In this document: positions 3,460 through 37,437 of the stretch, one piece after another
How positions within the stretch are numbered: the first letter of the stretch is position 1
How the letters are laid out: each line of letters starts with the position of its first letter
Virus record (IMG/VR): IMGVR_UViG_3300008624_000005
Coordinates: 1 to 64,000 of that record
From: a virus
Length of the DNA: 64,000 bases
Direction: 5' to 3' (one strand)
Translations under genes and position numbers: made by a program
The notes under the pieces: generated by a model
Told to the model about the DNA's origin: nothing
Seen by the model: the letters and a program-made list of their open reading frames with translations, nothing else
The model's database searches: none

Positions 3460-3479
3460 TTGGTATTGTTAATAATAGG

Positions 3480-16924: not shown

Positions 16925-17554
16925 TTAACTTGCTGTATAGTTAGTTCTCACTTTAATTGTGTATAGAACTTGAATCTTTCTGTTTGCACTTTTTTGGACT
17001 GGATGAAATACTACATGGCTTAATAATAATCCTTGATTTCTTCCATCGGCTGATTTTGCTTTTAAACCTAATTCATCAAATACAAAATTTCCATCAATAG
17101 TAGCATCGTCTGCTTTTTGATCTGCACTTGCTAAATTAAAATTTGTATCGCTTGCTACCGGTTCATCATAATTTAAAGTGCATGTTATTATAATATCTGT
17201 ATATGCATTTCCATCTGTATATGCAATATCCATTTTATTTTCTGTTGTGTCTGTATTATCAGCATCTAAAACATCTACATTTTTAAAGAACCTATCATTA
17301 TATAAATCATCATTTGCTAAAGTAACTTTGGGTTCTCTATATGTAATATTACCTTGAGCATCTATAATTGTACCGTCATTTCCGAAATGCATTTCATATA
17401 AAGAAAAATGATCTTTATTGCTTAGTGTAGTTGCAATACATCTGCTCATATTTTCTGCATGTATTTTATTTGCTTTATCGACAAGGATCTCACCTGTATC
17501 TACATCAAATATTTTAACGTGTCCTTGCATATCTATATTAAGATTACTTTTCAT
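16925..17554 (-). CDS. Conserved phage structural protein (209 aa)
   Basis: The protein begins with GHVKIFDVDTGEILVDKANKIHAENM (residues 11-36, with an IHAENM core), a pattern I associate with small structural proteins beside tail fibres in marine T4-like phages. It is acidic and beta-rich, without membrane segments. It is preceded by a perfect T4-type late promoter box at 17574-17581 and an AGGG sequence before the ATG, so it probably opens a late transcript with the two structural genes downstream. Its exact position in the virion is unknown. Confidence 0.65.
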   Translation of the reverse strand: MKSNLNIDMQGHVKIFDVDTGEILVDKANKIHAENMSRCIATTLSNKDHFSLYEMHFGNDGTIIDAQGNITYREPKVTLANDDLYNDRFFKNVDVLDADNTDTTENKMDIAYTDGNAYTDIIITCTLNYDEPVASDTNFNLASADQKADDATIDGNFVFDELGLKAKSADGRNQGLLLSHVVFHPVQKSANRKIQVLYTIKVRTNYTAS

Positions 17555-17573
17555 TTATAATACCCTATATTAA

Positions 17574-17581
17574 TATTTATA
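17574..17581 (-). promoter_or_regulatory. T4-type late promoter box TATAAATA
   Basis: The minus strand reads TATAAATA, an exact match to the T4 late -10 element. It overlaps the stop codon of the 4065-residue gene (17577-17579). The ATG of the 209-residue gene lies 20 bases downstream, leaving room for a start point and a short leader with AGGG. In T4 such sites are used by RNA polymerase with gp55 and gp33. Confidence 0.6.
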
Positions 17582-20500
17582 TGGTTCCTTTTCCTACATT
17601 TATAAGAGCCGCTTGTGTATTCGTGCTATTTTGTATTGTAGTAGTTCCATCATCATTAAATGCGTTATATGCTTCAGGATCAGGATCTACAGGAAGTGCT
17701 ACTGTAGGCCCTGCTGATGTTACTGTTGCACCTGATGTATGGGTTGCCGCCGCTGTTCCGGCTACACCCCTAGTACAACCTTGAAGAACTCCGGTATTTG
17801 TTGTTTCATATCGTATTCTTTCAGCCCCAATAACGACTTCTCCTGGTGCTGTAGGGAGTGGTGTTATTGATGTTACGGATATTTCTGTTTCCTTTGAATC
17901 AAGATCTTCTGTTGCTGTTGTTTTATTTGCATCTATAATTGTTTCATAAATTCGTGTACCTGTGTTATCAATAAACATTCTAAATGCTCTAGAATCAGCA
18001 GTTTCTGTACTACCTGATGTATTAGTTTGTACTCTTATATCGACAACTTCATCTGCCGAAGCATTAATTTCTTCTTCGAATGTTCTAGAATCAAAAACTG
18101 TTTCGATTTTAGAATGATACGGTTTAACTTCATTAAGATATGCTAAAATATCTTCTTCACTACCTACATCAAATGTTTTCGGAGTAAGAGCTCCTGGTGT
18201 TTTTCGTTGTAATTGTAAAAATGTAGTCTTAGCCACCCAATCTAAATTGGTTTGTTCTGCATATATAAAATGTATAATTGTAAAGAATAATTCTTTATAG
18301 TATTGTTTATATGTATCAATAAATATATCTTCATGTAAACCTTTTAAGATTGCTTGTAATTCATTTGTATAATTTTTATCCCAACCACCTATATCATATT
18401 CTGCGGCATCCCATCCTGCATCTACATCTTGAACATCATACAATAAACTTGATAATTCGATAGTTCCGTTTTGTTTACCAATTTTAAACCAACTATCATC
18501 TACCCATTGATAGAATGCCCAGTTACCATCTGCATCGTCACTATCAACCCTTACTACAGAATAAACATCTTCATTTACATCATATAATTCATTTCTTGCA
18601 CCTACTGTATATTGTGCAACCGACGATGAACTAATAGTAAAGTCTGGATGAAACCAATCAACATATTTCCAATAATCTTGAGGAGCAAAAGTTGAATTAC
18701 CTTTAGCAAAACTTTGTCCTAAATGTTTCTTCCAATTTAAATATGAATCACTTAAATTTATTTTTAATAAATTTTTATTTGCATTTTGTATCAATGCTCT
18801 TATTGCCTCTACCCTACTTTTAATCCAACTTTGTTTATAAGGCCGAATTTGCCCTCCATACCTAAATATATTATGTAATCGTAAATTAGGTACCATATTA
18901 GGTGAATCTACAGATATATTTCTATCATCGATCCAATTATAAGTTAATAATTCCTGCCATCGTTGCCTATTAAAATTACCTAATTCTTTAAACGTAGCAT
19001 ATTGATCATGAGCTACTGCGGTGGTAGATTGAGCGGCTCTGCTTACTATAATTCTATCACCTACTGCCGGATTAGTAAATTCCATACTATCAATATGCAT
19101 TACAAAACCGTTAGAATCAGGTACTTCTATTTCTAACCACATTGCATGATAATCGTCTGTGCTAGAAACAAATTCTCCTTGAACACTATAAACCAATGTT
19201 GTTCCGAGACTTGTTTCTTCGGATGACGTTTGAGGTGTTAAAGTAACAGCCGTCATTGCATCAAAATCTACATCAGTTGCCGAATGTCCATATTTTAATT
19301 TTACAGAATCTAAGGAAGTATTTGTTTTAAACAATGCTTTGCCTTGGTATTGTATATTTTGTAATATTGTACCTCCGGCTAAATTTGCATTTTTTAAACC
19401 TTTTTGTCCAACATAATGAGTTGCATTTTGACTTTCCCCTGTATATACACCACTTGCAAGTCCATATACAACGGCATTCGAATTAACAGTTGCTATTGTA
19501 AAAGTACCATCTGTTCCGCCTGTGACCGATACAACATCACCTACTGCATAACCACCACCACCTGTTTGTACTGTAGCAGATTGAATTACTCCATTTATTT
19601 GTGTTATGTCGAGAGTTAATCCTGTACCCGAACCGCCAGTTGTTGCGGCAATACCAGATGAATACCCAGTTCCACCTCCATAAATTGCAACGGTAGCAAC
19701 TTTACCTGTAGGATCTATTGTACCTAATTTTGTACTCCAAAATGCAGTAGTTTTTTGTTCAAAGTCTCCATTTGTTAACATATTAACATCTGCATTGAAC
19801 CTTCGTGTAGCAAATCTATCATAATATTTTAATTCTACAATTTCTTCGTTTGATTCGCCTTCGTCTATAACTGCATAAGAATTTTCGTATCCAGATCCTT
19901 TTCTAGTGGAATCCATGGCAATAGCAGTAATTTCACCATTTACAATTGTTATATCTGAATCTATTACAGTTGCTTGAATCCCGCCTTCTGAAGTCGGGGC
20001 ACTTATAGTAACAGTAGGAGGAGTTGCTGAATTATATCCTTGTCCAGGACGATTCATAACAATACTATCAACTTTACCACTTACTATATTTGCATATGCA
20101 TATGCTACTACATTTTCATATGGTAAACCATATGTATTTGATTCTGCTGGAGGATTACCTATTTCAACAGAAGCAGGAAAAGTTAATTCGCCTGCTTTTT
20201 CTCCTATTCTAAGTTGAATAGTAGTAGTTTGGTTATCAATGGATAATTTAGTATTTGTTTTAACTAAGGGCAACTCTTTATGTGTTTTATACAATTTAGC
20301 ACTACTTTTAACAACATCATTTGCCATATATTCTAATTTTTGATTCCAATCATAATTATATTTTTTAGCAGAATATGTTGTTGAAGCACCATGTACAGTA
20401 TATTCATTAATATCATCACCTGCCCAACCACAAAGAAACATTTGAAGTCCATTATTACTAAAGCAAAAGCCTCTTGCTTTAGTTTCTTGATCTGTTACCT

Positions 20501-23500
20501 CAAACGATTTATTTGAATAGGATGCTGTCGAAACATCAAATGCTGTTGATAATGTATATTTGAATATTGTCGGAGCACCACTTCCGTTTAAAACATACAT
20601 TGTAGTTCCATCTGATTGAAATTGTACTGCTGATGGTTTTCCGGCTTCAGAGCTAACATCAAAATTTTGAGAATATGATGCTGTTGAAATATCAAAACCT
20701 GTTGTTAATGTATATTCATTAATATCATCACCTGCCCAACCTGTAACATACATTTTAGTTCCATCATTATTAAATGCCAAACCATAAGGCTGGAGTTCTT
20801 GAGTACTAACATCAAAACTATCTGTGTAGGAGGCTGTTGAAAGATCAAAACCTGTACTTAAAGCATATTCATAAACTTTATCAGTATTTTGACCTAACAT
20901 AATCAATATAGTTCCGTCTGTATTAAATTCTATACTATTTGATGATACGTCTTGACTACTGATATCTAAAGACTGAGCATAAGTTATTGTTGAAACATCA
21001 AATGCGGTTGATACCGAATATTCATAAACTTTATCATTACCTCTACCTAACATAAACATTTTAGTTCCGTCTGTGTTAAACTTCACATCTCTTACATCGC
21101 TATCTTGAGAACTTACAGTAGCTGAGGCTTTGACAAATGTAAAAAGTCCTGCACCTGTTGGTGTTGGTGTTGTGTATGTATAATTTTGATCTTCTTCAAT
21201 TCCTGCTATTTTTAATAAATCTTTATTTTCGTCTATACCTAAAATACTTTCATGAAGTCTATTAGCAAATCTATTTGGTATTGTTGTTTCTTGATCTTCT
21301 TCTCTAATAGTAATCCATTCTTTATGCGAATCATCAATATCACTAGTAAAGTTTATTTGAAAAACAGAATTTTGGGTTAATCGTTCACCTACATTACCAG
21401 TTATAATATTTGATACACCTCCAGGAGCCGCCCAAAAAAGTCCTTGTGCCGTAGGATCATTTAAGTATTCTCCAATTACTTTTGTAGATATTTCTCTATG
21501 AGATTGGGTTTGTGGAACTGAAGTTTTATTTTTAACCCAAAAATAATAAAATGTAGATACTTGTCCTGTTTGTGGATCAAGTGCTTCTTCTTCGCACCAA
21601 TAGTAATGGGTAACTCCACTTAAAATTTTTGTATATGCTTCACCTGATGCAATTTCACCATCTATTTCGTAATTACCTTCAACTAACGTAACCCATTCAT
21701 CAGGTGCAACCGTACTTTTTGTCCATTCATATATATCCATCGAAGAACCAGGAAATTGTTCTCCCCAGTGTTTAAATGTATAATCTAAATCTAACGGTTG
21801 TTCATATTCTATATATCGAACAGTATTTAAATTCCACCATGAAATACCAACCTCGTGTTGCCCCCAATTTCGTGTTGAAGTTAATGTTTCTGTGTCTTGG
21901 GTTGTAGCATTATATAATGCTTGATCATAACCTGAAATAATATCAATTTCTGCTTCAGCAATTCCAGGTACTATACCTTTAAACGGATCCCATACTTCTG
22001 CTCTTGCTAATTCTTTATTTTGTTCATAATCATATACAATAACATTTGCTAATTGTCCTGTGTCTGCTTTTGGCTGTTGTTTGTTCACTTCAATAAATGT
22101 TCTATTAGTAGCATCATATTTAAATGAACCCCAACCTTTAGTTCTATTCTTATAAACAATCATTACTGGCTGTCCTGCTTGAAAAGTACCACCTAAATTT
22201 TCAGGATAAAATACAATAGTAGTTCCTATTACTTCCCATGCCTTTGTGCCTCCACTTCCAGGTTCAAATTTTTGTCTAAACTCTCCTACATATACATCTA
22301 AATCACCTGCTGTTGCTGGATATACTAATTCATAAGTTGATGTCAATGTAAACGAAGTACCACCTGCAAATGATGGATTATATGAACCTGCGGCGGATGA
22401 GGCACCTATTGCTAGAGCTTGGACATCATAGTATGCATCGCAATAAGCATAATTATTAGTTACCCAGCTCCATTTTGTATCGGCAATAGATGAAAACATT
22501 GCTGAATAATCCGAAAATCTACTTTTTCTAAATGCAAATACTTTACCATATACTTCATTGCTACCAACAAATTCATCTATATAAAATTGTTTATTTTCTC
22601 TTAATCCACACGTTTGACAATCCGAGCCTGTCGGAAATCCAGTTACCTTATGAATTCCATTTAGTGCAGGATTATTTTCTGCACCTGTAATCATAACATA
22701 ATCGCCTTCAGCTAAATTATGATCAACTCCTAATTTAATAAGGGCTTCGTCACCAGTTTCATATCCTTTACAAATTTGTTCAATTCCAAAATTATCATCT
22801 TGAAGATTGAATGTCGACCAATCGCCTGCTCCTGTATCTGCTGTCCATACATTAAATAATCCTGCTTCACCGGTTTCTATCCATCTATCAGTAACATTGC
22901 CACTAACTTCAGCATCAGTTTTATAATTAAATGCCGACAAATACATTTTATCATCATCTGCAGGAATATTTATAGCAGGTATTGCCCCATCTGCAAATGA
23001 AAAAATATACGTAAAATCACCATTTGCATCCACACCTCGTTGTACAGATGAATCAACTGAACTTGTACTAGGTCTATCTACAGGTGAATAATAAGTAAAA
23101 TCAAATTCTCCAAATCTAGCCGTAACACCTGTTATACCATAAAGATAAGGATCAGCAGTTGCAGTAACTTTAGAAATACCATCAACTGTGAAAACACATT
23201 TTTCAATTACAAGTTCTGCTAAATTACCACTTGCATGAGTTTTTGTATATTTTGCATTTACTATACCATAAAAACTTTTAGCGGCCGCATTTATAATTCT
23301 TGTAGAAGTATATCGCTTACCTTTATATCGTACATAATATCCTTTTGCATAGGTATATGTATCTTTCCAATTTGGTGTCTGAAGTAATTTATATAATAAT
23401 GAACTATCGTCATCTTTATATTTGTCATATAATGTAGGTAAATCTTCTAATTTAAAAACTTGATACGATGTTTCTTCTAATCTAGGATAACCAGCATTAG

Positions 23501-26500
23501 GTAAATCTTTTTCATACGTTTCAATTTCAGCAAGAGTATCTATCGATTGATCAAATATAGGTCTAGTACTAAATTGAACAGCAGGATTTGTTGATGGTTG
23601 TTCTAACCATCTTCCGTCTCCGCCTAACATACTAATAGTAGTATCATAATCAAAATCTGTTGCTTGTCCTTGATAAATTTCCCCAAAATTTATTAACTGA
23701 GGATTTGCTTTTATATCTGTATTTTTAAGTGTAAATTCTTTAGTTGTTTGTTTAGATTCAGGTCCAAATTCACCTAACCTAAACATCCATTCTTCTTCTA
23801 GATTAATATCAACACTTGCTTCAAGTAAAAATGTACTTCTAGTCAATCTATTAAAAACTTCAGGTGTACCTTTTAAATGGCTTACTCCTTTCATAAATTG
23901 AAATTGCACATCTTCTGAAAGACGCATATTTCTTAAAAATTGTTTCTTTTCATAACCAATATTTTTTCTAGCAACATTTATACTATCTTTATTCAATCCT
24001 GTTTGCTCAGATGCAAAATAACTAGAGGTTATATTGTCTACAGTTTTATCAAAATTTTCATATATTGTGTCACCATAAACTAAATAACCAGGCGCATGTA
24101 ATGAGCCATTCCATTCTGGAGTTTTTAAATATTCTATTTTAAATCTATGTTTTGCATCACCTAAAATAGGATAATAAATTATATCATCAAATATTGTTTT
24201 ATTGTTAATTATTAACAGATGTTCATAATCACATACAACAAACGAAGCACAATAAATCGCCCTACTTTCGTCCTTAGGCTTAACAGTTATATAACTTAAT
24301 TGCCTATCTACATCTACAGTCGTTGAGTCAAATAAAGATTTATTTACATCTAAATAAAAACTGCCATATTCATAATCATTGCTTTTTATATGACCATGTG
24401 TAGTTTTAAAATATAATAAATTACCTGCAGGACTTAATTTAATAGATGTGTCGTCGCCCCATTCGGCTTCAGACCATAATATAAATTGTTGGGCAGTTAA
24501 TGTCCAGTCTTCATATACTCCATCTTGATTAGGATAATTAAATTCAAATCCTACATTTTCTAAATATTTTCCATAAGCATATAAGAAATTATACACATCA
24601 TTTGCTGATTCAAATTCTGTACCATAATCTATCCGTTTTGTGCCTGTATCAAATTCCGAATATAATTGAATATTTGTTTCACTTACTGTAATTTGTTTAA
24701 TTGTCGACTTTAATTGATTTTGTATTGTAAAATACGGTTTATCATTATGATATCCATAAACAGCATAACCTGTTGATGTTTTAATAATTTCAACACCACT
24801 ATAAATATATTCTTTATATGGTGATGAAGTGTGAAATTTAATAGTTAAGTCATCGTTTGGTATAAAGTTATTTGATTTTTCTGATTGTAAACTATCTGCC
24901 AGCATAGATATAGAAGATTTTTTAGAAAATCCTTGCATTTTGTAACTTAATTTTGTGTTTAACTGTCTTAGTTGTCTAGCAAAATCTACATATATATCAT
25001 TACCTAAAAACATTAATCTATCAACAATAGGTTGTTGCAATCCTAATATTCGTCTAGATAAATTATTATTATCTACTTCATTATGAACGAATAATTCATT
25101 TGAATTATGTCGTTTTTTTGTTTTATTAGATATAAATTGTTTTTTACGTTCTACAGATACTACTTCTATTACACCACCTTCTTGGGTGTGGTAAAGACCA
25201 CCTTGTGAATCATAATAGTATAATATTTCTGGGGTAGATGAAGTTGGCGAAAATGTAGGTTTAGTTGGATCAGTTGCTTCGTCCCAACCTGTTGTATACT
25301 GTCCAGAGACCTGGCCTTCCCATGCTTCTGATAATTGAAAATCATGTGTATTGTAAGATGCATCTGTTAAATTAAATGTATATACATTTCCTGCTTGTAG
25401 TACTAATTTTTTCTGCTGGACACCATCTAAATAAAATACTGTACCAGAGGTGTTACCAGCCTTAGGGGCTGTTGTCACATCAATTGTTATTGCTTTATTT
25501 CCGCCATCAGTTATTTTATCTTTTGTATCATAATATTTTTCTAAATATTTTGCAGGATTTATTGAAAATAAAAATTCATTTTCTATATATGGGAACAACG
25601 ATGTTCGTTTCCATACAGTTTCTATCGGACTGTTGTCACCTATTGACCAACTTGCTTTGGCGTCTAAAGCCGTTGGACTTGACATTAAAGTTGCGGTAAC
25701 CGGATCTTGTAATGTTCCGTCTGCGGCCACAGGAAATGTAGCACCAGGCCTCGCAACATTAATATCTTGAACAATAGTTTGGCCAGGTTCTGATATAATT
25801 CCTTTTTGCAAAGCAGAAATCATATTATTTCGTTTAGTAGCATTGACCCATTCGTAATGTGTATCCCACCAAGAAGGTTTTCCTATAAAACCTAACATTT
25901 CCCAAGGATGAGAATGTGGTCTATCTGTATCAAAATAATGTTTATAAATGCCTCTCCAATATCCTATTCCATTGGCATTAGCATCTGCACTATAATTCCA
26001 TGTAAATTTATTATTTACATCATATCCTGTATTTGGTAATAATGTTATACCTCGAGCAATCTTAAATGCGTTAAAATAATTATCATAAAAATTATTTCTA
26101 TCAGTTATTGTATATGGCGTTGTTCGATATTTTCCAGGAAATAAAGTTAAATCTTTTCGTTTAGATTCTGGACTATGTGAATAGGTTACTATATTGTCAT
26201 CGTCGCTATTAAACTCAGATTGTATATGTCCATAAATTCTATTTTCTAATTCTAATAATGCTTTATCTCTATAATCTGTTATCGTGTGTGATAAAACAGA
26301 TCCCGAGCCTGTAATAGTTGAATCGTGAGCTACTGTTTTTGAACCGTCATGTCCTTCAATTACAACTACTGTTCTAGAACCTGTATCGTCAACATAACTT
26401 TTTGGCACATACGTTGGAGCAACGCCCAATTTAGCAAGAGTAGGTGGTATAAAACTTAATCCTTCGTCAATACTAACTTTTATGACAACTTTTCCTGATG

Positions 26501-29500
26501 CAACCGCTGTCCCCAATGTAATAGTATTTGCATTAGGATTTAATGTAAACTCAGTTTCAAATGTTTCAACATCATTGGTATCTACTGTATAAACATACAC
26601 ATGATTATGATATTGGTTTTTTCTTGTAATTGTTTTAGGTAAAGTAAATGTACTAGTCGATGTTGTAACTGAATATGTTTTTTCGACCATATTAAAATAA
26701 TACGCCATATCACTATTTGCAAATGGAAATGTATTATTTTTACCTAAATTTAAATCATATAATGCTTGATCAACTAATGCACTTGTGTTTGTGCCGGAAT
26801 CCATTGAAGCATATAATTGTTCAATTTTTTGTATGAATTTCTTTTTAAACACATTATAACTATCAGCAGTATAATCTAATGCTAATAATAAATCATAATT
26901 TTCATTTCCTAACATTAAACCAAGTTTAAGTAAAGGAGATATTTGGTGATTAATTGTTCCGCCAAATCCTGATTCACCACCCAAACTTCTATAATTATTA
27001 TTACCAAATGCCGGACCTTTTAAACCAGGATGCTTATCAATTAAATCAATCATATGCGGAAATATTTCTGCGTACGAAATATTACCCAATACATCATTGC
27101 CTGGATTGTTTTTAAGTCCAGTTGGAACGTCATATGCCCATTCATCTGTAGCACTAGTATCTGTAGTATAAAATTTTACATCTACTATGTCACCTACTGC
27201 TAATAAATTATCTGTACTTTGCGTTTGATTAGCAGGAGAAAATACTGGTACACCAGCATCAGAAACTGTTTCGTCTGTTCCTGAACTTTCGTAAGGTATA
27301 ACTACTTTTTTTCCATTAAAAATATAATGTGTATCACGAGTTAATCTTACACCGTTATGATATACTTCTGGCCATCCTTGCTCTAATACTTTATCTATTA
27401 TGATAAGTTTACCAGTTCCACTAGGTGAAGAATAATATAATACATCATTAGATTCTGTTTCGCTTACTGCAAATGTAACTATACCACTATGAGTATTATT
27501 ATTTGTAACACCTGTACCATATGCCGAGGCACTTGCATCTTGTATTTGGAATGCTGTAGTTCCGTTAGTTATATCAAATGTATAAGTTTGCCCTTTAGCC
27601 AAATATAGTGTAGGGTTTATGCCTGAAAGTTTTTCAAATCCATAAGCAGATTTTAAACAAAATTCAAATCCTGTTGTAGTTGCTATAACATTATAATCAC
27701 GTTCTGGTTCGAAATTAGTTGTACCTAAATCAACAACAAAATCATCTTGTGCATTTGTAATATCTCGGGTTATAGTAATAGGTGTTCTAATTTGTTTGTA
27801 ACTTTGTTCCCAACAATTATCAAAATCATATTTAGAAATGTCTCTATCAAACTTTCTTAGATAATACAATCCTAATATATCTTTTGGAATGGTACCTCTA
27901 TCATACAAATACATTGTTTGCTGATGAGAATTATTAAACATTAAATTTGAAGTATTAGTAGACGACAAATAATTTGTAGTTGCATATGTTAACGGAAAAC
28001 CTAAAAATTTATCCTCTGATCTATCAGCAGTGGTTTTGTCTTCTAAATATTCAAAAACTGTATTACCTAAAAAGTCTGTTTCATTATATTCTGATAACGG
28101 TTGAAATGTTGTATCATATAATTCAAACTTTACTGGAACATTTTTAGTACCTTTTTCTTGTGCTAATCTCCATGTTGTTTGAGTAGATGTCTGGGCCGTT
28201 GGTCCATTTCTTCCATCAAACCAATAATCTTGACCTTGTAATGTGGTTCCATTTAAACTTGTAACAACATCACCATGTGTTGGAGGACCTGCTCCTCTAC
28301 CATCTGTTTCTAATGTTAGGGCTGTTGCACCTGTATTTGCTGTATTAACTTTATAAATTTTATTATTGTATGTGTCATTTGAAGAATTAACAAATAATAC
28401 TCTATCATTATCTTGAACTGTATATCCATCATGTACTTCTGCCGCGGCAGACCCGCCTGATAATAGAAAACCGTTTGTTCCATCAGCAGGATTCATTGCT
28501 TCTGTAATAATAATATCAACAGGTTTTCTAAAATGTGTGCCATAATTATATAAATGTAAATCTCTTTCCCATTCTATTATAGGACGTTGTGCATAATCAT
28601 CGTCAACAATAATACCATCTAATTTAAATGATTTAGTAAGATTTAACATTGTGTTTACTGCTTGAACAGTATTAATATGATACCAATTATTAACTCTAGA
28701 CCATGCATTATTATCTCTTGCACTTTTTTCCATACAAATATATTCATGCATATAATGGACATCTTTATTCGCATTTACATATGGAGGCCTTGTAGTTTGT
28801 CCGCCCATAATATGTAATGTAACTCCACTAGTTGCATATCCTGCTCCTGCATTTGTAATTGTCAATGTGGTATCTACAGCACCATTGTTAACATCAGCCT
28901 CTAATATTGCGTGGGTACTTGGTGTACCACTTTGATCATATACATTAACAAATGGTATATGAACATAGTTTGTACCTTGTGTTCCTACTGAGGCAGTTGC
29001 AACAGAACCGGTTCCTGTATCAACTGTACCCAGAGCTTGAGTTGGTGTAGCAAGCCCCATAGAAGTTTCTGTTACTGAACATAATGTACTTTCATCTATT
29101 AAGGTTATCTTTTTACCTACACCTGTTACCAAATATGTTTTTGTATCGTTAATAAATGCAAGTCGCATTCCGTTTTCTAATGTTAATGTCCTGTTTCCGT
29201 GGATAACTTGAGCTGATGTTGTGTATGTTCTTTTACCTTCGATTCCTGCTTTTGTTTCGCCATGTAATCCTACAAGAGGCAACCCAAATGGCAACCACAC
29301 ATAACTATTCCAATTAACAAACATATCATAATTTATAGGTGGTTTCCAAGCATAATTATAATCAGAAAATAATTTATCTAAATTTGTTGTGTTAGTTTCA
29401 AGATATTTTAACTTACTAATAATATCATCATATGGTATAGCAGATTCATATTCTGAAGTTGATGGGTTTTGGCTTACGACTGTAGGATCTACTTGATATC

Positions 29501-29774
29501 TATTGTTAAGGGTTGTTTTACTTTCAGTATAAACATCTTTTGCTGATGTTCGTATTGCTCCTATTTTTTTACCAATATAACCTGATTCAATTTTAGGATT
29601 GCCACTTAAAATCATTTGATCTAATGTAGCATTTAAAAACTTTTTATTAGTATCAGATTGAAGATATTCCGGTAATAAATCATACGTAGATCTTTTTGTA
29701 GTATTTTTACTTGTAGATCCGGGTATAGTATTATCTACCTGGTCACTGGTGTTTTTACTAGAATAATCTGCCAT
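17577..29774 (-). CDS. Giant virion structural protein next to gp6 (4065 aa)
   Basis: This 12.2 kb gene follows gp6 by 12 bases. Residues 29-60 (YDLLPEYLQSD, then KKFLNATLDQMI) and the AWKPPINYD segment near 140 match the N-terminus of very large structural proteins found beside gp6 in marine T4-like phages, in the place where T4 has gene 7. Further on there are cupredoxin-like beta domains without copper ligands, several GxGY beta repeats, and five repeats of about 51 residues (roughly residues 2878-3130) that look like beta-propeller blades. The C-terminal part contains long helical segments. A baseplate or tail-spike role is likely from position. It could be a gp7 equivalent, but no alignment supports that here. 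A GAAAATAA sequence precedes the ATG. Confidence 0.7.
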   Translation of the reverse strand: MADYSSKNTSDQVDNTIPGSTSKNTTKRSTYDLLPEYLQSDTNKKFLNATLDQMILSGNPKIESGYIGKKIGAIRTSAKDVYTESKTTLNNRYQVDPTVVSQNPSTSEYESAIPYDDIISKLKYLETNTTNLDKLFSDYNYAWKPPINYDMFVNWNSYVWLPFGLPLVGLHGETKAGIEGKRTYTTSAQVIHGNRTLTLENGMRLAFINDTKTYLVTGVGKKITLIDESTLCSVTETSMGLATPTQALGTVDTGTGSVATASVGTQGTNYVHIPFVNVYDQSGTPSTHAILEADVNNGAVDTTLTITNAGAGYATSGVTLHIMGGQTTRPPYVNANKDVHYMHEYICMEKSARDNNAWSRVNNWYHINTVQAVNTMLNLTKSFKLDGIIVDDDYAQRPIIEWERDLHLYNYGTHFRKPVDIIITEAMNPADGTNGFLLSGGSAAAEVHDGYTVQDNDRVLFVNSSNDTYNNKIYKVNTANTGATALTLETDGRGAGPPTHGDVVTSLNGTTLQGQDYWFDGRNGPTAQTSTQTTWRLAQEKGTKNVPVKFELYDTTFQPLSEYNETDFLGNTVFEYLEDKTTADRSEDKFLGFPLTYATTNYLSSTNTSNLMFNNSHQQTMYLYDRGTIPKDILGLYYLRKFDRDISKYDFDNCWEQSYKQIRTPITITRDITNAQDDFVVDLGTTNFEPERDYNVIATTTGFEFCLKSAYGFEKLSGINPTLYLAKGQTYTFDITNGTTAFQIQDASASAYGTGVTNNNTHSGIVTFAVSETESNDVLYYSSPSGTGKLIIIDKVLEQGWPEVYHNGVRLTRDTHYIFNGKKVVIPYESSGTDETVSDAGVPVFSPANQTQSTDNLLAVGDIVDVKFYTTDTSATDEWAYDVPTGLKNNPGNDVLGNISYAEIFPHMIDLIDKHPGLKGPAFGNNNYRSLGGESGFGGTINHQISPLLKLGLMLGNENYDLLLALDYTADSYNVFKKKFIQKIEQLYASMDSGTNTSALVDQALYDLNLGKNNTFPFANSDMAYYFNMVEKTYSVTTSTSTFTLPKTITRKNQYHNHVYVYTVDTNDVETFETEFTLNPNANTITLGTAVASGKVVIKVSIDEGLSFIPPTLAKLGVAPTYVPKSYVDDTGSRTVVVIEGHDGSKTVAHDSTITGSGSVLSHTITDYRDKALLELENRIYGHIQSEFNSDDDNIVTYSHSPESKRKDLTLFPGKYRTTPYTITDRNNFYDNYFNAFKIARGITLLPNTGYDVNNKFTWNYSADANANGIGYWRGIYKHYFDTDRPHSHPWEMLGFIGKPSWWDTHYEWVNATKRNNMISALQKGIISEPGQTIVQDINVARPGATFPVAADGTLQDPVTATLMSSPTALDAKASWSIGDNSPIETVWKRTSLFPYIENEFLFSINPAKYLEKYYDTKDKITDGGNKAITIDVTTAPKAGNTSGTVFYLDGVQQKKLVLQAGNVYTFNLTDASYNTHDFQLSEAWEGQVSGQYTTGWDEATDPTKPTFSPTSSTPEILYYYDSQGGLYHTQEGGVIEVVSVERKKQFISNKTKKRHNSNELFVHNEVDNNNLSRRILGLQQPIVDRLMFLGNDIYVDFARQLRQLNTKLSYKMQGFSKKSSISMLADSLQSEKSNNFIPNDDLTIKFHTSSPYKEYIYSGVEIIKTSTGYAVYGYHNDKPYFTIQNQLKSTIKQITVSETNIQLYSEFDTGTKRIDYGTEFESANDVYNFLYAYGKYLENVGFEFNYPNQDGVYEDWTLTAQQFILWSEAEWGDDTSIKLSPAGNLLYFKTTHGHIKSNDYEYGSFYLDVNKSLFDSTTVDVDRQLSYITVKPKDESRAIYCASFVVCDYEHLLIINNKTIFDDIIYYPILGDAKHRFKIEYLKTPEWNGSLHAPGYLVYGDTIYENFDKTVDNITSSYFASEQTGLNKDSINVARKNIGYEKKQFLRNMRLSEDVQFQFMKGVSHLKGTPEVFNRLTRSTFLLEASVDINLEEEWMFRLGEFGPESKQTTKEFTLKNTDIKANPQLINFGEIYQGQATDFDYDTTISMLGGDGRWLEQPSTNPAVQFSTRPIFDQSIDTLAEIETYEKDLPNAGYPRLEETSYQVFKLEDLPTLYDKYKDDDSSLLYKLLQTPNWKDTYTYAKGYYVRYKGKRYTSTRIINAAAKSFYGIVNAKYTKTHASGNLAELVIEKCVFTVDGISKVTATADPYLYGITGVTARFGEFDFTYYSPVDRPSTSSVDSSVQRGVDANGDFTYIFSFADGAIPAINIPADDDKMYLSAFNYKTDAEVSGNVTDRWIETGEAGLFNVWTADTGAGDWSTFNLQDDNFGIEQICKGYETGDEALIKLGVDHNLAEGDYVMITGAENNPALNGIHKVTGFPTGSDCQTCGLRENKQFYIDEFVGSNEVYGKVFAFRKSRFSDYSAMFSSIADTKWSWVTNNYAYCDAYYDVQALAIGASSAAGSYNPSFAGGTSFTLTSTYELVYPATAGDLDVYVGEFRQKFEPGSGGTKAWEVIGTTIVFYPENLGGTFQAGQPVMIVYKNRTKGWGSFKYDATNRTFIEVNKQQPKADTGQLANVIVYDYEQNKELARAEVWDPFKGIVPGIAEAEIDIISGYDQALYNATTQDTETLTSTRNWGQHEVGISWWNLNTVRYIEYEQPLDLDYTFKHWGEQFPGSSMDIYEWTKSTVAPDEWVTLVEGNYEIDGEIASGEAYTKILSGVTHYYWCEEEALDPQTGQVSTFYYFWVKNKTSVPQTQSHREISTKVIGEYLNDPTAQGLFWAAPGGVSNIITGNVGERLTQNSVFQINFTSDIDDSHKEWITIREEDQETTIPNRFANRLHESILGIDENKDLLKIAGIEEDQNYTYTTPTPTGAGLFTFVKASATVSSQDSDVRDVKFNTDGTKMFMLGRGNDKVYEYSVSTAFDVSTITYAQSLDISSQDVSSNSIEFNTDGTILIMLGQNTDKVYEYALSTGFDLSTASYTDSFDVSTQELQPYGLAFNNDGTKMYVTGWAGDDINEYTLTTGFDISTASYSQNFDVSSEAGKPSAVQFQSDGTTMYVLNGSGAPTIFKYTLSTAFDVSTASYSNKSFEVTDQETKARGFCFSNNGLQMFLCGWAGDDINEYTVHGASTTYSAKKYNYDWNQKLEYMANDVVKSSAKLYKTHKELPLVKTNTKLSIDNQTTTIQLRIGEKAGELTFPASVEIGNPPAESNTYGLPYENVVAYAYANIVSGKVDSIVMNRPGQGYNSATPPTVTISAPTSEGGIQATVIDSDITIVNGEITAIAMDSTRKGSGYENSYAVIDEGESNEEIVELKYYDRFATRRFNADVNMLTNGDFEQKTTAFWSTKLGTIDPTGKVATVAIYGGGTGYSSGIAATTGGSGTGLTLDITQINGVIQSATVQTGGGGYAVGDVVSVTGGTDGTFTIATVNSNAVVYGLASGVYTGESQNATHYVGQKGLKNANLAGGTILQNIQYQGKALFKTNTSLDSVKLKYGHSATDVDFDAMTAVTLTPQTSSEETSLGTTLVYSVQGEFVSSTDDYHAMWLEIEVPDSNGFVMHIDSMEFTNPAVGDRIIVSRAAQSTTAVAHDQYATFKELGNFNRQRWQELLTYNWIDDRNISVDSPNMVPNLRLHNIFRYGGQIRPYKQSWIKSRVEAIRALIQNANKNLLKINLSDSYLNWKKHLGQSFAKGNSTFAPQDYWKYVDWFHPDFTISSSSVAQYTVGARNELYDVNEDVYSVVRVDSDDADGNWAFYQWVDDSWFKIGKQNGTIELSSLLYDVQDVDAGWDAAEYDIGGWDKNYTNELQAILKGLHEDIFIDTYKQYYKELFFTIIHFIYAEQTNLDWVAKTTFLQLQRKTPGALTPKTFDVGSEEDILAYLNEVKPYHSKIETVFDSRTFEEEINASADEVVDIRVQTNTSGSTETADSRAFRMFIDNTGTRIYETIIDANKTTATEDLDSKETEISVTSITPLPTAPGEVVIGAERIRYETTNTGVLQGCTRGVAGTAAATHTSGATVTSAGPTVALPVDPDPEAYNAFNDDGTTTIQNSTNTQAALINVGKGTI
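20390..21140 (-). repeat. Five tandem ~51-residue propeller-like repeats
   Basis: At DNA level the phrase encoding FDVSTASYS recurs about every 153 bases near 20528, 20681, 20837 and 20988, with a related unit near 20390. Each protein unit reads roughly V.FNTDGTKMF..G...D.VYEY.LST.FD.STASY. A 29-base stretch encoding GWAGDDINEYT is identical at 20402-20430 and 20712-20740. The pattern fits beta-propeller blades; five visible copies suggest a five-blade propeller or a six-blade one with a divergent blade. Confidence 0.7.
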
Positions 29775-29786
29775 TTATTTTCCTAA

Positions 29787-32700
29787 TTAATAATAATTAC
29801 TTCCGCCTGAACTAGAACTAGAACCTGTACCTGTTACGACTCCTGTAATACTTGTTGTTGCTGTTGGAGTTTCAACAAGTCCTGCGGCAATTCTCATATT
29901 TGTCTCAGTATATGAATCAACTATATCAACATCTGATACCTTTGCGGCACTAACAAAAAGTTCATGAGCATTAGGTGTAACTTGAAACATATTACCAAAC
30001 CTAGAATCTGCATTTGTTGGAACAATTACTAATGAAGAAATTATACCTATCATATTTCTATGAATAAATGCGGCAAGTTCTGTAAAATAAAATGTTTCGC
30101 CAAAATCCCAATTATCAGGTTCAAAATAATCATCAACATAATCTACTATTGTTGCTTTTATTTCATTGTCGGTTAAATTTGTTGTTGGATTTTTAACTAC
30201 TTTAAATTTTGCTTGTAATGCATAATCTGCTTCTGTACCAAATAAAATTTTATATTCACAAGATTTATAAATTATTGTATCAGAAGATGTTTTTGCATCT
30301 TCTAATGCCATAAACATTGTTTTTAAATCTTCTGTAGTATGTGGCAATGGCTTATATTTTGCTCGCCTATCATTTTTCAGCCAATTTCTAAACTCAGTAT
30401 TATACGTATTTGTTAATACAAAAGTATCTATAATATTTGTAACCGCTGGATCAATTCGTGTTTCCTCACTAGCGGCATGCTTCCATTTAAATCGTACTCC
30501 TGATCTACCTGTATATTTTGCATAAATTAAATCTCTTTTATACGACCATTTAGACGTATCAGTTGGTAGCACACCTAAATTACTTGCAACTTTAGATTCA
30601 TATTCTGCTCCATTATATTCTACTTTATCTGCCAAATCATACGATGTAGATGAAACCCAATATTTTATAGAACCATCTGCATTTGTTGGAGGTGGTGTAG
30701 TCATTAATGTTTTATATACATAATTGTCTACTAATTCATCTGCAACATAAATTTCATTGGATCCTACAATACTATCAAAAGCAAACGGATCATCTATCAC
30801 ATAATCTTTATTAGTATCTGCAAATTTTAATAATACTCTACGTGGATCTGTATAACCATCATCATATGTATAAAATCCTTCAATATCAAAATCATAATTT
30901 GCAGTTAATAATGATGTACCTAAACCTCCGCCGACAGTTGTGAGAGGTTGTAAATTAATATCTAATATTCTGATTTCATCCTTTGTAGATTTTTTTGTAA
31001 TTTTACTAACTTTATTATCTAATCGTTGGTTAAAAAATCTAACATTTTTTATTGAACCGAAATTATATTTTATAGCTCTTGCTAAAAACACCCATTGGTC
31101 TGTTTGGAATTCTATTCTTATTAAATAACTATTATCCGATTGTGTTCCTGCTGTACTTTCAGTTAAACTAAAAGCAGTAGATTCTGATTCCCCTAAATCA
31201 ATACCTAATATAACTTCATATTGGTTATTCCTATGATCCCATCGTATACCAAATGAATTATTAAGTTCTAATTGATCTTTAATTGCTGTAATTTCAGTTG
31301 CACTAAATTTATTATTATATGCAGGTGCTATACGTTTTATTCTAACATTATTTGGTATATTCCTTGATAATGATACAGTACCATATTCTTCTTTAGTTTT
31401 ACCTGTGTAACCTAATGAAGAACTTGTAACTCCTCTACCATCTCCATATATTCCAGTTATACTCGCCCAAGTAGTTGACGATCCTGCTACAAAATTACCG
31501 TTAGTATCCACTTCTGCGAATTCTATATTTGCACCTTCAACTAAAAATTTACCTATTGAATCTAACGAATCTTTACCTATAGCAACTATATCAGGAGTAG
31601 TAGCACCTTTTTCAAAATAACCAGTTGCTTGTCTAGCAGAACCTGTTACTTTTTTCCAAGTCCACATTTTTGCGGCTAACGCAGGAGTTGCTTCGTCTGA
31701 TGTTGTAAAATGTAAATCATCTCCTGTTGTACTACCCGACCAAACAAAATCATTTTTATATTTTTGATAATAAAAGTTTTGTACTTCAGATTCTTCTAAA
31801 TATGGTTGTAAGTATTGCTCAATAATATCTGTTGGATTTAACGGAGTAGGTAATGTTAATGTTTTTCGTAAAAATGTTTCTTCTTTAAAAATATATCCAT
31901 CATCACCAAAAATAGTTAAATCTTTATATGTTCCTGTCGGGTCGTTAATATCAACATAACGTGTATGACCACTGTGTACTCTATTTGTACTTTTAATTTT
32001 TGTAATATTTGTCGATGCTTGCAATGGATAAACCGCATAATCTTGTGCTGATACCATTCTATTTTGAGTACTGTACACCTGTGGTGCCTTAGCTTGTATA
32101 CTAGTATTTGATTCTGTTAATACACTATTTTTTATAGGTTCTTCTAAATCTAGTGTAACAACTAAATCATATAATTGCAAATCATGCTTACTAAAATAAG
32201 GTATAGTAATTTCTATATCTCGAATATCGTCTGCTCTAATGGTATATTCTTCACCATTTCCTACTCTATACCAAATACGTATAATACCTTTAGGTGCATT
32301 ACCAAATCTACCATCGGCAAATTTAACACTAATTGCATCTTCTGCATTAGTAACTACTTGAAAAATATCTCGAATATTATTATCGACTGCATTAAAAATA
32401 ACATTTGATCCTACTACTGTATCAACCGGAATCCACGTTGTTACTATTTGTCCTGTTTGATCAATAGTTTGAACCCATACATCATCATTAACAATATTTG
32501 ATGTTGTTATATCTATAACTTGATTTTCAATTGGTCTTGAAATTAACGTGTCTTTAAATTCTATAGAACCTTGCTTAAAATAAAAGAAAAATCCTGTTTT
32601 AGCACTAGCATTCCCTTTTCCATCATTAAGGTACAAACATCGCATAGCAGAATTAGGATCTGGATATGGTTCAAATAAACCTAATGTTCCATCCACATCA

Positions 32701-33344
32701 ACATTTGTTATTTCAAATGGTATAGATTCTCCTTGCACAGTACCAGCAAAAGTATGAGTCACATTTTGTTGTGTTTGTGAATTCATTTTATAAATTTCAG
32801 TTTTAACACCATCTATTGTTGCCGCTTTAAACGGAGTACCAAATTGTGTCGTATTGCCAAATGCAGAATTCATTACCATTAAAAATTGCTCATATGCATT
32901 TGCATTTGTAGAATCATTCCAAGTAATATCAGTGTTCAGTAAATTATTACCATCCGAATCAATTAATGCTTCTGTTGTTCTTATTGTTTTAATTTTTAAC
33001 ACACCACTTGAATTTATGCTTCTAGTAGGATTATATCCGAGGAACCTGGCTAATCTTAATATCGAATCTCTACTTTGAGCAGTTTCCATAAAATTTTCAC
33101 GAGTAGCAAAATCTGTTCTAAACGCTAAATTATGGCCCATAAAGGCTATTAAATCCATCAAACTAATAAATTCAGATGATTGGATCCAATCATTATAATC
33201 TTCTGGGTAGTTTAATCTTATATAATCTACCATTGCCGCTTTTAAAGTATCAAAATCATATGCTTGAAAATTAGATTGAGCAAATGATTGGTATTTTGCT
33301 ATATAATCTTCTGCGGCAAATAAAACATCTTGTCGTGTAGCCAT
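29787..33344 (-). CDS. 6: Baseplate wedge protein gp6 (1185 aa)
   Basis: The N-terminal 120 residues match the T4-like gp6 family well: DFDTLKAAMVDYIRLNYPE, then NDWIQSSEFISLMDLIAFMGHNLAFRTDFATRENFM and RDSILRLARFLGYNP. gp6 dimers form the inner ring of the T4 baseplate and join wedges to each other and to gp25 and gp53. T4 gp6 has 660 residues, so this one carries about 500 extra residues in its middle and C-terminal parts, as seen in other marine T4-like phages. It lies four bases after gp25, the arrangement expected for a wedge operon. The last residues are Ser/Gly-rich. Confidence 0.92.
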   Translation of the reverse strand: MATRQDVLFAAEDYIAKYQSFAQSNFQAYDFDTLKAAMVDYIRLNYPEDYNDWIQSSEFISLMDLIAFMGHNLAFRTDFATRENFMETAQSRDSILRLARFLGYNPTRSINSSGVLKIKTIRTTEALIDSDGNNLLNTDITWNDSTNANAYEQFLMVMNSAFGNTTQFGTPFKAATIDGVKTEIYKMNSQTQQNVTHTFAGTVQGESIPFEITNVDVDGTLGLFEPYPDPNSAMRCLYLNDGKGNASAKTGFFFYFKQGSIEFKDTLISRPIENQVIDITTSNIVNDDVWVQTIDQTGQIVTTWIPVDTVVGSNVIFNAVDNNIRDIFQVVTNAEDAISVKFADGRFGNAPKGIIRIWYRVGNGEEYTIRADDIRDIEITIPYFSKHDLQLYDLVVTLDLEEPIKNSVLTESNTSIQAKAPQVYSTQNRMVSAQDYAVYPLQASTNITKIKSTNRVHSGHTRYVDINDPTGTYKDLTIFGDDGYIFKEETFLRKTLTLPTPLNPTDIIEQYLQPYLEESEVQNFYYQKYKNDFVWSGSTTGDDLHFTTSDEATPALAAKMWTWKKVTGSARQATGYFEKGATTPDIVAIGKDSLDSIGKFLVEGANIEFAEVDTNGNFVAGSSTTWASITGIYGDGRGVTSSSLGYTGKTKEEYGTVSLSRNIPNNVRIKRIAPAYNNKFSATEITAIKDQLELNNSFGIRWDHRNNQYEVILGIDLGESESTAFSLTESTAGTQSDNSYLIRIEFQTDQWVFLARAIKYNFGSIKNVRFFNQRLDNKVSKITKKSTKDEIRILDINLQPLTTVGGGLGTSLLTANYDFDIEGFYTYDDGYTDPRRVLLKFADTNKDYVIDDPFAFDSIVGSNEIYVADELVDNYVYKTLMTTPPPTNADGSIKYWVSSTSYDLADKVEYNGAEYESKVASNLGVLPTDTSKWSYKRDLIYAKYTGRSGVRFKWKHAASEETRIDPAVTNIIDTFVLTNTYNTEFRNWLKNDRRAKYKPLPHTTEDLKTMFMALEDAKTSSDTIIYKSCEYKILFGTEADYALQAKFKVVKNPTTNLTDNEIKATIVDYVDDYFEPDNWDFGETFYFTELAAFIHRNMIGIISSLVIVPTNADSRFGNMFQVTPNAHELFVSAAKVSDVDIVDSYTETNMRIAAGLVETPTATTSITGVVTGTGSSSSSGGSNYY

Positions 33345-33347
33345 TTG

Positions 33348-33722
33348 TTATATTTCCTCGTCTATTTCACGGTCGAATTGTAACGCCATAACTTCTAATT
33401 GGTCTGTGGGTTGATAAAAAAGGCTTAATTTAACACTTAAAGCATTATTATTAGAATAAGTCTCTACGCCTTCTAGCCTCCATCTTGGATCTTTTCCTAC
33501 AATATCTATGCAATCTTCTTTAACTGCTTCTTCAGTTGAATCATTCCATGGTTCAAACATTAGTTGCCAAATCATAGAACCAAATGAAGGATTCATTACT
33601 CGCTCACCTCGTTTAGTATGGAAGTGATTTTTTAAATCCTGTTTTGCTAATTCTATATCGTGTAATTTTCTAGTTTTTGGTCCTTGAACTGTCGAAAATC
33701 CTTTAAATAATGTTTTTGCCAT
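33348..33722 (-). CDS. 25: Baseplate wedge protein gp25 (124 aa)
   Basis: The length is close to T4 gp25 (132 residues). The motif RGERVMNPSFGSMIWQLMFE (residues 39-58) is diagnostic for the GPW/gp25 family, whose members form part of the sheath-initiating baseplate core. The gene opens the minus-strand structural run: an AATAAATA late-type box lies 24 bases upstream and TAAGGA precedes the ATG. gp6 follows after three bases. Gene 53, which neighbours gene 25 in many relatives, is not seen between them. Confidence 0.95.
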   Translation of the reverse strand: MAKTLFKGFSTVQGPKTRKLHDIELAKQDLKNHFHTKRGERVMNPSFGSMIWQLMFEPWNDSTEEAVKEDCIDIVGKDPRWRLEGVETYSNNNALSVKLSLFYQPTDQLEVMALQFDREIDEEI

Positions 33723-36510: not shown

Positions 36511-37437
36511 ATGAAACTGATTACAGGTAACGCAAATACAAAACTTGCTACTGATATTGCTAATATTGCCGGCGTTGAATTATGCGAAACTCTAGTAACT
36601 AGATTCGCCGACAATGAAATATGGGTAGAAATAAAAGACAACATTCGTGGTGAAGATGTTTTCCTCATCCAAAGCACATGCAATCCCGCCAACGACAACT
36701 TAATGGAATTATTAATAATGGTTGATGCTTGTAAAAGAGCAAGTGCAGGTCGAATTACGGCTGTAATACCTTATTATGGTTATGCTAGACAAGATAGAAA
36801 ACCAGCAGGACGATCACCTATTAGTGCCAAACTTGTTGCTAATATGTTAGAAGCGGCAGGGGTAGATCGTATGCTAACTATGGATTTACATGCAGGTCAA
36901 ATTCAAGGTTTTTTTGATATTCCTGTAGATAATCTATATGCCCAACCATTATTTGTTGAAGACTTATTATCAAGCCCAATGATTAGTGCTGGTAATGCAA
37001 TAATAGTTTCACCAGATGCAGGCGGAGTTCCCAGAGCAAGAGCAATAGCAAAAAAATTAAATCTAGATATTGCAATTATAGATAAAAGACGAGATAGGGC
37101 TAATGAGTCCGAAGCAATGAACGTCATAGGAGACGTAAAGGGGAAGCAATGCATCATCGTCGACGACATAATAGATACAGGTGGGACATTAGTAAAAGCC
37201 GCACAGGCATTAATAAGCGAAGGCGCCGAAGAAGTGGAAGCATATATAACACACGGTGTATTAAGCAAAGGCGGAGCGAAGAGGATGGAAAAATCAGCTC
37301 TGAATAGATTAGTAATAACTGATACTATTCCTGCACCTGAAAATAAAGTACTAAAAGTCATTTCAGTTGCGAATATATTTACTGAAGCAATTCGCAGAGT
37401 ACATCATGATGAATCAATATCAGTATTATTTGAATAA
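36511..37437 (+). CDS. prs: Ribose-phosphate pyrophosphokinase (PRPP synthetase)
   Basis: The protein is full length (308 residues against about 315 in bacteria) and carries all the family motifs: FLIQST (51-56), PYYGYARQDRK (87-97), the signature DLHAGQIQGFF (125-135), catalytic DKRR (191-194) and the PRPP loop VDDIIDTGGTL (217-227). The enzyme moves pyrophosphate from ATP to ribose-5-phosphate, making PRPP for purine, pyrimidine and NAD synthesis. The segment NPANDNLMELLIM resembles alphaproteobacterial enzymes, which suggests capture from a host. Its stop overlaps the start of the next gene (TAATG). A close relative of Prs, Adps, works in the phage NAD-restoring pathway NARP1; no partner Namat gene lies in this window. 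Confidence 0.95.
   Translation: MKLITGNANTKLATDIANIAGVELCETLVTRFADNEIWVEIKDNIRGEDVFLIQSTCNPANDNLMELLIMVDACKRASAGRITAVIPYYGYARQDRKPAGRSPISAKLVANMLEAAGVDRMLTMDLHAGQIQGFFDIPVDNLYAQPLFVEDLLSSPMISAGNAIIVSPDAGGVPRARAIAKKLNLDIAIIDKRRDRANESEAMNVIGDVKGKQCIIVDDIIDTGGTLVKAAQALISEGAEEVEAYITHGVLSKGGAKRMEKSALNRLVITDTIPAPENKVLKVISVANIFTEAIRRVHHDESISVLFE

What the first reader, a model, noticed from the sequence alone, without database searches (positions are those of the whole stretch)
17577..29774. 4065-residue structural protein with a propeller insert
It is among the longest phage proteins and carries five tandem propeller-like blades in the middle of a structural chain. Blades within a baseplate-side protein suggest a receptor-binding arm.
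Basis: partly seen in the sequence, partly recalled or inferred. Interest (0 to 1): 0.55.

Follow-up and report, generated by a model that had tools for sequence, protein, structure and literature searches.

The report
Swappable five-blade propeller on phage baseplate
A very large tail-baseplate protein of a marine phage carries a ring-shaped five-blade module that relatives gain, lose and exchange as one whole unit, and the same module sits on surface proteins of ocean bacteria, so it is probably an interchangeable cell-binding head.

Summary
The 4065-aa ORF is real (minus strand, 17577-29774). It follows gp25 and a gp6-like wedge gene and belongs to a giant virion-protein family (phrog_10938) whose CBB and PA5oct members were seen in virions by mass spectrometry. 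Five ~51-aa repeats (aa 2888-3129, closing strand 2878-2886) are far beyond chance. AlphaFold2 gives five four-stranded blades, the N-terminal strand completing blade 5 (pLDDT 83.5, pTM 0.84): a closed ring, not a solenoid. In phages and bacteria these arrays come almost only in fives (or 10, 15).

The module behaves as a cassette. An 89%-identical relative differs by exactly 255 codons; presence/absence needs at least three changes on the backbone tree; the copy shared with L002 is far less diverged than the gene around it. Two other places in the same protein family hold propellers, one of a different lineage. Its closest kin are fused to PAAR tail-spike tips and a baseplate wedge protein; more distant kin are SAR11 autotransporter passengers.

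Best reading: an exchangeable surface-binding propeller, working like that of phage phi11 Gp45. The ligand is unknown; receptor binding is inferred, not shown.

The parts
17577..29774 (-). giant virion structural protein, 4065 aa, family phrog_10938, directly downstream of gp25 and gp6-like genes
   Evidence: ORF; phrog_10938 E 5.8e-297; same gene order and MS-detected homologs in CBB and PA5oct
20385..21146 (-). five-bladed propeller cassette at the M-site (aa 2877-3130)
   Evidence: repeats; model; exact 253-255-residue gap in L004 and L006
21117..21143 (-). closing (velcro) strand, aa 2878-2886, completes blade 5
   Evidence: strand 11-19 of the model; recurrent isolated strand-D hit ahead of many arrays
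20961..21113 (-). repeat 1 (aa 2888-2938)
20808..20960 (-). repeat 2 (aa 2939-2989)
20655..20807 (-). repeat 3 (aa 2990-3040)
20496..20654 (-). repeat 4 (aa 3041-3093)
20388..20495 (-). repeat 5 (aa 3094-3129), three strands only
18015..18020 (-). C-site, empty here; relative L009 carries another five-blade propeller (257 aa) at this place
   Evidence: alignment (insertion after aa 3919)
29787..33344 (-). gp6-like baseplate wedge subunit, 1185 aa
   Evidence: phrog_10646 (E 0) and phrog_219 baseplate wedge subunit
33348..33722 (-). gp25-like baseplate wedge subunit, 124 aa
   Evidence: PF04965 E 8e-8; phrog_43 E 1.5e-15
16925..17554 (-). next gene downstream, 209 aa, phrog_11259 (unknown function)

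Best explanation
The window encodes a giant baseplate wedge-position protein of a large marine myovirus, into which a self-contained five-bladed beta-propeller is inserted. The first strand and the last three strands of the insert pair to close the ring, so the module begins and ends at one spot and can be dropped into a loop or linker without disturbing the host chain. Recombination adds, removes and exchanges it as one unit (255 codons), between related phages and, on an evolutionary scale, between several baseplate or tail-tip proteins (PAAR spike, wedge proteins, the giant protein at three places). The likely job is binding of a cell-surface or envelope ligand (glycan or protein) by the face made of D-A and B-C loops, which varies most, giving the baseplate an exchangeable contact head. 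Shown: repeats, predicted closed five-blade fold, cassette behaviour, tail-protein contexts. Inferred: surface exposure in the virion, ligand binding, role in host choice.
For: Fold: AF2 model pLDDT 83.5, pTM 0.84, 20 strands in order D + (A B C D)x4 + A B C; best VIA rows 3qqz Z 22.9 (rmsd 2.8, 227 aligned), glutaminyl cyclases 3mbr Z 22.3 (2.9, 220) and 2iwa Z 21.2 (2.8, 218), ahead of NHL domains at Z 19.6 or less. Fixed number: uncut arrays are multiples of five in 135 of 140 from the viral scan, 99 of 109 from bacterial genomes, 10 of 10 in the protein's own family, 4 of 6 in named phages. Cassette: L002 against L006 is 88.9% and 89.7% identical on the two sides with 765 extra nt in L002; L003 and L004 (without) are 97.9% identical over 12,019 nt up to the site; presence/absence needs 3 changes on the backbone tree of 9, forced by starred branches; third-position difference window-L002 is 0.077 in the insert against a minimum of 0.202 and median 0.286 in 331 backbone windows, dS 0.127 against about 0.6-0.7. 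Context: one clade (100/100) holds the M-site arrays, a baseplate wedge protein (L093), PAAR-spike fusions (L088, L092) with their near copies L090-L091, and L089; S-SKS1 and S-SCSM2R carry related arrays in baseplate wedge proteins; SAR11/SUP05 arrays are autotransporter passengers. Variable face: D-A plus B-C loops differ 0.46 on average, A-B plus C-D loops 0.20, p 5e-6, 8 arrays. Precedent: phi11 Gp45.
Against: No binding data and no virion structure. Absence from close relatives (L004, L006) shows it is not essential for the particle, and is equally compatible with a decoration without a receptor role. The loop contrast may partly reflect that the A-B and C-D turns are the blade's structural signature, or that a conserved face is the binding one. 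WIN-L005 shows no excess divergence of dN over dS in the insert, so no positive selection was shown. The model of the surrounding chain failed (pLDDT 43.6). Propellers also serve as enzymes and scaffolds.
Confidence: 0.6

Rival explanations
1. The propeller is a structural or protein-protein decoration: a docking plate for other tail proteins or a spacer that stabilises the baseplate, with no contact to the host.
For: Propellers are common scaffolds (recalled); the module also sits in internal-looking wedge proteins (gp53-type L084, L093).
Against: Near-identical phages lack it (L003/L004, L002/L006), which a scaffold part would hardly allow; the same family is shown on the outside of SAR11 cells as autotransporter passengers; one face varies.
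Confidence: 0.22
2. The propeller is an enzyme, for example a lactonase, glutaminyl-cyclase-like or glycan-cleaving domain that attacks the cell surface.
For: The sequence profile reaches YVTN/lactonase-type propellers (1l0q E 1.9e-14, ybhE 2.7e-4) and the fold is close to glutaminyl cyclases.
Against: The hits are to repeat-type blades below family cut-offs (SGL 25.5 bits against 26.3); a fold match shows no function; known lactonases of this kind have seven blades (name, 25 tables: Lactonase, 7-bladed). Catalytic residues were not examined.
Confidence: 0.1
3. The repeats form an open solenoid or are a neutral repeat expansion.
For: Tandem repeats of one length; repeats near-identical enough for slippage.
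Against: Closed model with velcro strand; unit number fixed at five in unrelated contexts; whole-unit gain and loss of 253-255 residues rather than single blades.
Confidence: 0.03

Closest known systems
Staphylococcus phage phi11 Gp45 receptor-binding protein (PMC4901313; abstract, search passages and section 7 read)
   Same: Five-bladed propeller in a baseplate protein; N-terminal strand closes blade 5 with three C-terminal strands; closest enzymes by fold are glutamine cyclotransferases in both.
   Different: Gp45 is a 3-fold stem-platform-tower RBP of a siphovirus; here the ring is an optional insert in a giant wedge-position protein with high repeat regularity; sequence relation was not tested.
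Giant virion proteins next to gp6 in RaK2-like and PA5oct-like jumbo phages (CBB gp236, PA5oct gp355; phrog_10938)
   Same: Same family by sequence, same gene order gp25-gp6-giant protein, detected in virions.
   Different: CBB and PA5oct copies lack the propeller repeats.
Cyanophage S-SKS1 baseplate wedge protein (unannotated ORF, L083:8608-13410) and S-SCSM2R gp53-type protein
   Same: Same blade family in baseplate wedge proteins of cultured phages.
   Different: Other protein families (phrog_2885, phrog_232); four and three clear blades detected, the rest degenerate or missing.
YVTN / lactonase propellers (1l0q, 1ri6)
   Same: Blade sequence profile is detectably related.
   Different: Those rings have seven blades; these come in fives.
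SAR11 / SUP05 autotransporters with propeller passengers (L178, L183, L195, L201)
   Same: Same five-blade family, presumably on the cell surface.
   Different: Bacterial protein with signal-like N-terminus and PF03797 barrel; about half identical or less to the window's array.

Membership tests
Five-bladed beta-propeller (fold) | Five four-stranded antiparallel blades | tested here: met
   20 strands as 5x4 in the AF2 model; five repeats
Five-bladed beta-propeller (fold) | Ring closure by pairing of N- and C-terminal strands | tested here: met
   Order D,(ABCD)x4,ABC in the model and the matching HMM pattern in many arrays; a prediction, not an experimental structure, and contacts were not measured on coordinates
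YVTN/lactonase superfamily | Significant profile similarity of blades | tested here: met
   1l0q E 1.9e-14, ybhE 2.7e-4 with profile of A1
YVTN/lactonase superfamily | Seven-bladed ring | tested here: not met
   Five blades; so not filed as a lactonase or YVTN protein
phrog_10938 giant virion protein (RaK2-like) | Profile match over the conserved core | tested here: met
   E 5.8e-297
phrog_10938 giant virion protein (RaK2-like) | Gene order gp25, gp6-like, giant protein | tested here: met
   Window; CBB; PA5oct
T4 gp7 baseplate wedge | Sequence homology to gp7 | tested here: inconclusive
   Profile A3 (13 rows) against PDB chains found no gp7 at E up to 1; position after gp6 is only suggestive
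phi11 Gp45-type receptor-binding protein | Five-bladed propeller in a baseplate protein | tested here: met
phi11 Gp45-type receptor-binding protein | Homotrimer with stem, platform and tower | not testable with these tools
   needs a structure of the assembled particle
phi11 Gp45-type receptor-binding protein | Binds a host surface ligand | not testable with these tools
   needs binding assay
PAAR spike fusions (context of nearest relatives) | PAAR domain in L088 and L092 | tested here: met
   phrog_281 E 4.3e-13 and 3.6e-13; Pfam PAAR 28.2 bits against cut-off 27 in L092, below cut-off in L088

The most novel reading that the evidence does not exclude
Marine phages and their hosts share one pool of five-blade propeller cassettes: SAR11-type cells show them outward as autotransporter passengers and giant adhesins, and phages capture them into baseplate, spike and fibre proteins to bind what the host's own propeller binds, or to bind the host's propeller itself. 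The C-site lineage, whose nearest sampled relative is a propeller in a Pelagibacteraceae giant protein (L225, 100/95), would be such a capture.
Probability: 0.2. Interest if true: 0.78.

Novelty: new variant of a known kind. Interest (0 to 1): 0.58.

Why it matters
Propellers in phage receptor-binding proteins are known from few cases. Here a single five-blade module can be followed as an exchangeable part across several baseplate and tail-tip proteins, with near-identical phages that differ only by its presence. That is a natural experiment for what such a domain does, and its sharing with surface proteins of SAR11, among the commonest cells in the sea, makes the question of phage attachment to these cells testable with a small soluble domain.

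Tried and rejected
Extended solenoid or slippage: rejected by the closed model and the fixed number five. Seven-bladed lactonase: rejected on blade number. T4 gp7 by sequence: profile A3 against the PDB found no baseplate protein of T4, inconclusive. Chitin-binding module next to the site: only weak hits (2rts E 0.025; PF02839 14.4 bits against 26.2 in the gp6-like protein), left as a lead. Context model of aa 2700-3340 with 10 rows: pLDDT 43.6, not used. Positive selection on the insert: window-L005 dN/dS in the insert is like the backbone, not shown. A search of the structure lists for phi11 Gp45: not among the 50 rows shown, which excludes nothing. Extra scans for more close relatives gave only 8 and 2 loci, mostly the same contigs. 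A first count that gave six blades for some arrays was an artefact: the sixth hit is the 10-15-residue closing strand. Papers searched for prior description; none listed describes this module, but the library holds open-licence papers only.

Unequal evidence: L003 ends inside its array, so its right junction is unseen and a chimeric contig cannot be excluded; the L002/L006 pair does not have this weakness. L001 (and its other loci L085, L239, L248) is 100% identical to the window where compared and is not independent; L040/L041 have identical arrays and L042/L047 nearly so.

Full report
OBSERVATION. The ORF 17577-29774 is on the minus strand, 4065 codons, ATG start. Five repeats lie at aa 2888-2938, 2939-2989, 2990-3040, 3041-3093 and 3094-3129. 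The best 40-residue self-alignment scores 136; 100 shuffles of the protein reach at most 60 and 200 shuffles of the array at most 41. The array lies 71-77% along the chain.

THE PROTEIN. Upstream in transcription are a gp25-like gene (PF04965 E 8e-8) and a gp6-like wedge gene (phrog_10646 E 0). The giant protein matches phrog_10938, a virion structural protein (E 5.8e-297). A tblastn of its core (aa 1527-2853) against named phages gave 60 records, none covering 80% of the query: many are jumbo phages such as RaK2, PBECO4, GAP32, CBB, PA5oct and SCTP-2. CBB gp236 (3340 aa) and PA5oct gp355 (3857 aa) stand in the same gene order. So membership of the virion is shown for homologs; the place in the baseplate is inferred from gene order. 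A link to T4 gp7 was not found by sequence.

THE FOLD. AlphaFold2 with nine arrays gives pLDDT 83.5, pTM 0.84 and 20 strands in the order D, four times A-B-C-D, then A-B-C. The strand ahead of repeat 1 therefore completes blade 5. The best structural rows are 3qqz (Z 22.9, rmsd 2.8, 227 aligned), 3mbr (22.3, 2.9, 220) and 2iwa (21.2, 2.8, 218), then NHL domains from Z 19.6 down. That the two glutaminyl cyclases are five-bladed is recalled. BFVD matches include uncharacterised marine phage proteins and one named baseplate wedge subunit. By sequence profile the blades relate to YVTN/lactonase propellers. The ring contacts were not measured on coordinates.

A QUANTUM OF FIVE. I scored blades with an HMM in 236 loci (L001-L236). 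Arrays not cut by a contig end are multiples of five in 135 of 140 (viral scan), 99 of 109 (bacterial genomes), 10 of 10 (the protein's own family) and 4 of 6 (named phages); 20 cut arrays were set aside (7 viral, 12 bacterial, 1 family). The exceptions have 1-4, 6 or 9 scored blades; the two nines are 549-residue proteins whose tenth blade scored separately. Near-duplicates are counted. The loci were picked with a five-blade query, which works against short arrays but not against 6 to 9 blades, so the lack of those is informative.

A CASSETTE. Against the window protein, L004 and L006 lack 253 and 255 residues at this place and are otherwise collinear. L002 and L006 align at 88.9% and 89.7% identity on the two sides, with 765 nt, 255 codons, more in L002. 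L003 and L004 are 97.9% identical over 12,019 nt up to the site; L003 has the propeller, but its contig ends inside it. On a tree of nine backbones without the insert columns, presence/absence needs three changes, which the well-supported branches force; the sister pairs L003/L004 and L002/L006 (the latter 85/91) each differ. The tree cannot tell gains from losses. Third-codon difference between window and L002 is 0.077 in the insert; 331 backbone windows of the same size run from 0.202 to 0.375; dS is 0.127 against 0.59-0.71. Between L005 and L002 the insert is 0.113 against a minimum of 0.190. The insert has therefore been exchanged between backbones. For window-L003 the insert (0.227) lies just under the backbone minimum (0.238), and for window-L005 and L002-L003 it lies inside the backbone range, so exchange is not shown for those pairs.

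OTHER PLACES AND LINEAGES. L009 has no insert at the M-site but a 257-residue five-blade array after the residue that corresponds to aa 3919. Six more family loci (L040, L041, L042, L043, L047, L053) have arrays in a like C-terminal position. L089, same family (phrog_10938 E 1.9e-238), has one at its extreme C-terminus. In all, 11 of 79 family loci have an array; many of the 79 do not span the whole gene. In a tree of 77 arrays (all special ones, 32 of 154 other phage arrays, 28 of 107 bacterial arrays, drawn at random; arrays under five blades left out except L003), the M-site arrays group at 100/100 with L093, L088, L090-L092 and L089; the C-site arrays form another clade (100/100) next to L225, a Pelagibacteraceae giant protein (100/95). 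Holding M- and C-site arrays together is rejected (p-AU 0.0066), though the group was named after the first tree was seen. The M-site rows are not one clade by themselves in that tree, as L093 falls among them with weak support.

CONTEXTS. L088 and L092 are PAAR proteins with the propeller (phrog_281 E about 4e-13; Pfam PAAR 28.2 bits in L092, below cut-off in L088). L093 is a 2809-aa baseplate wedge protein (phrog_17744 E 5e-38; PF23786 E 6.5e-9). In cultured phages, S-SKS1 carries an array in an unannotated 1601-codon frame just after gp6 (phrog_2885 baseplate wedge) and S-SCSM2R in its gp53-type protein. Lentibacter, Roseobacter and Maribacter phages also have it. In bacteria, arrays form the N-terminal part of autotransporters in three SAR11 loci and one SUP05 locus examined (PF03797, E 2.1e-43 to 1.1e-25; 4 of 4 proteins chosen for their look), and occur in giant adhesin-like proteins and in Bacteroidota and Patescibacteria.

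MECHANISM. A ring that starts and ends at one point can be inserted in a loop without changing the chain around it, which explains why it moves as a unit and never by single blades. Its dispensability, its presence on tail-tip, wedge and fibre-like proteins and on cell surfaces, and the more variable D-A/B-C face (0.46 against 0.20 mean pairwise difference in eight M-lineage arrays, Mann-Whitney p 5e-6, residues not independent) fit a binding head. Which loops share a face is recalled. The closest functional precedent is phi11 Gp45, whose five-bladed propeller is proposed to hold GlcNAc and whose best DALI hit was also a glutamine cyclotransferase (PMC4901313); there too binding by the propeller rests on modelling. 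Binding here is inference.

NOVELTY. Phage propellers are known; an exchangeable five-blade cassette shared by baseplate proteins and SAR11 surface proteins was not found in the searches made. I file it as a new variant of a known kind.

Noticed in passing
window 53776-55800 (-): 674-aa protein with a C-terminal glucose/sorbosone dehydrogenase domain (PF07995 E 9.4e-48, aa 297-596) behind a tail-fibre-like N-terminus: a second, unrelated propeller-type domain in the same structural cluster.
   Followed up: partly
window 50908-53766 (-): 952-aa protein with a major tropism determinant N-terminal domain (PF18454 E 9.8e-15) and a C-terminal match to a wedge/tail-fibre connector (phrog_677).
   Followed up: no
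window 60341-63904 (-): 1187-aa protein with PKD-like domains (PF00801 and PF18911, both under cut-off) and phrog_8578.
   Followed up: no
window 378-6241 (-): Three related proteins with cysteine motifs that look like radical SAM/SPASM enzymes (by eye), next to likely glycosyltransferases up to 9737; no family search was made.
   Followed up: no
window 36511-37437 (+): Looks like a ribose-phosphate pyrophosphokinase (by eye), an auxiliary metabolic gene.
   Followed up: no
L178:5872-8043, L183:5929-8010, L195:5890-8070, L201:5911-8697: SAR11 and SUP05 autotransporters whose passenger is a five-blade propeller; no paper found with Pelagibacter, propeller and autotransporter together.
   Followed up: partly
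L083:8608-13410 (Synechococcus phage S-SKS1): An open frame of 1601 codons with a strong baseplate wedge match (phrog_2885) and a propeller array lies in a stretch of the public record without any annotated gene.
   Followed up: partly
L234:3487-8091: A Patescibacteria protein with six scored blades in one array (289 residues), the only clear six among the uncut arrays.
   Followed up: no
L040 and L042, giant family protein: Other domains, by eye cupredoxin-like and YHYH-like, sit in the same giant baseplate protein upstream of the C-site propeller, as if it were a general display frame.
   Followed up: no
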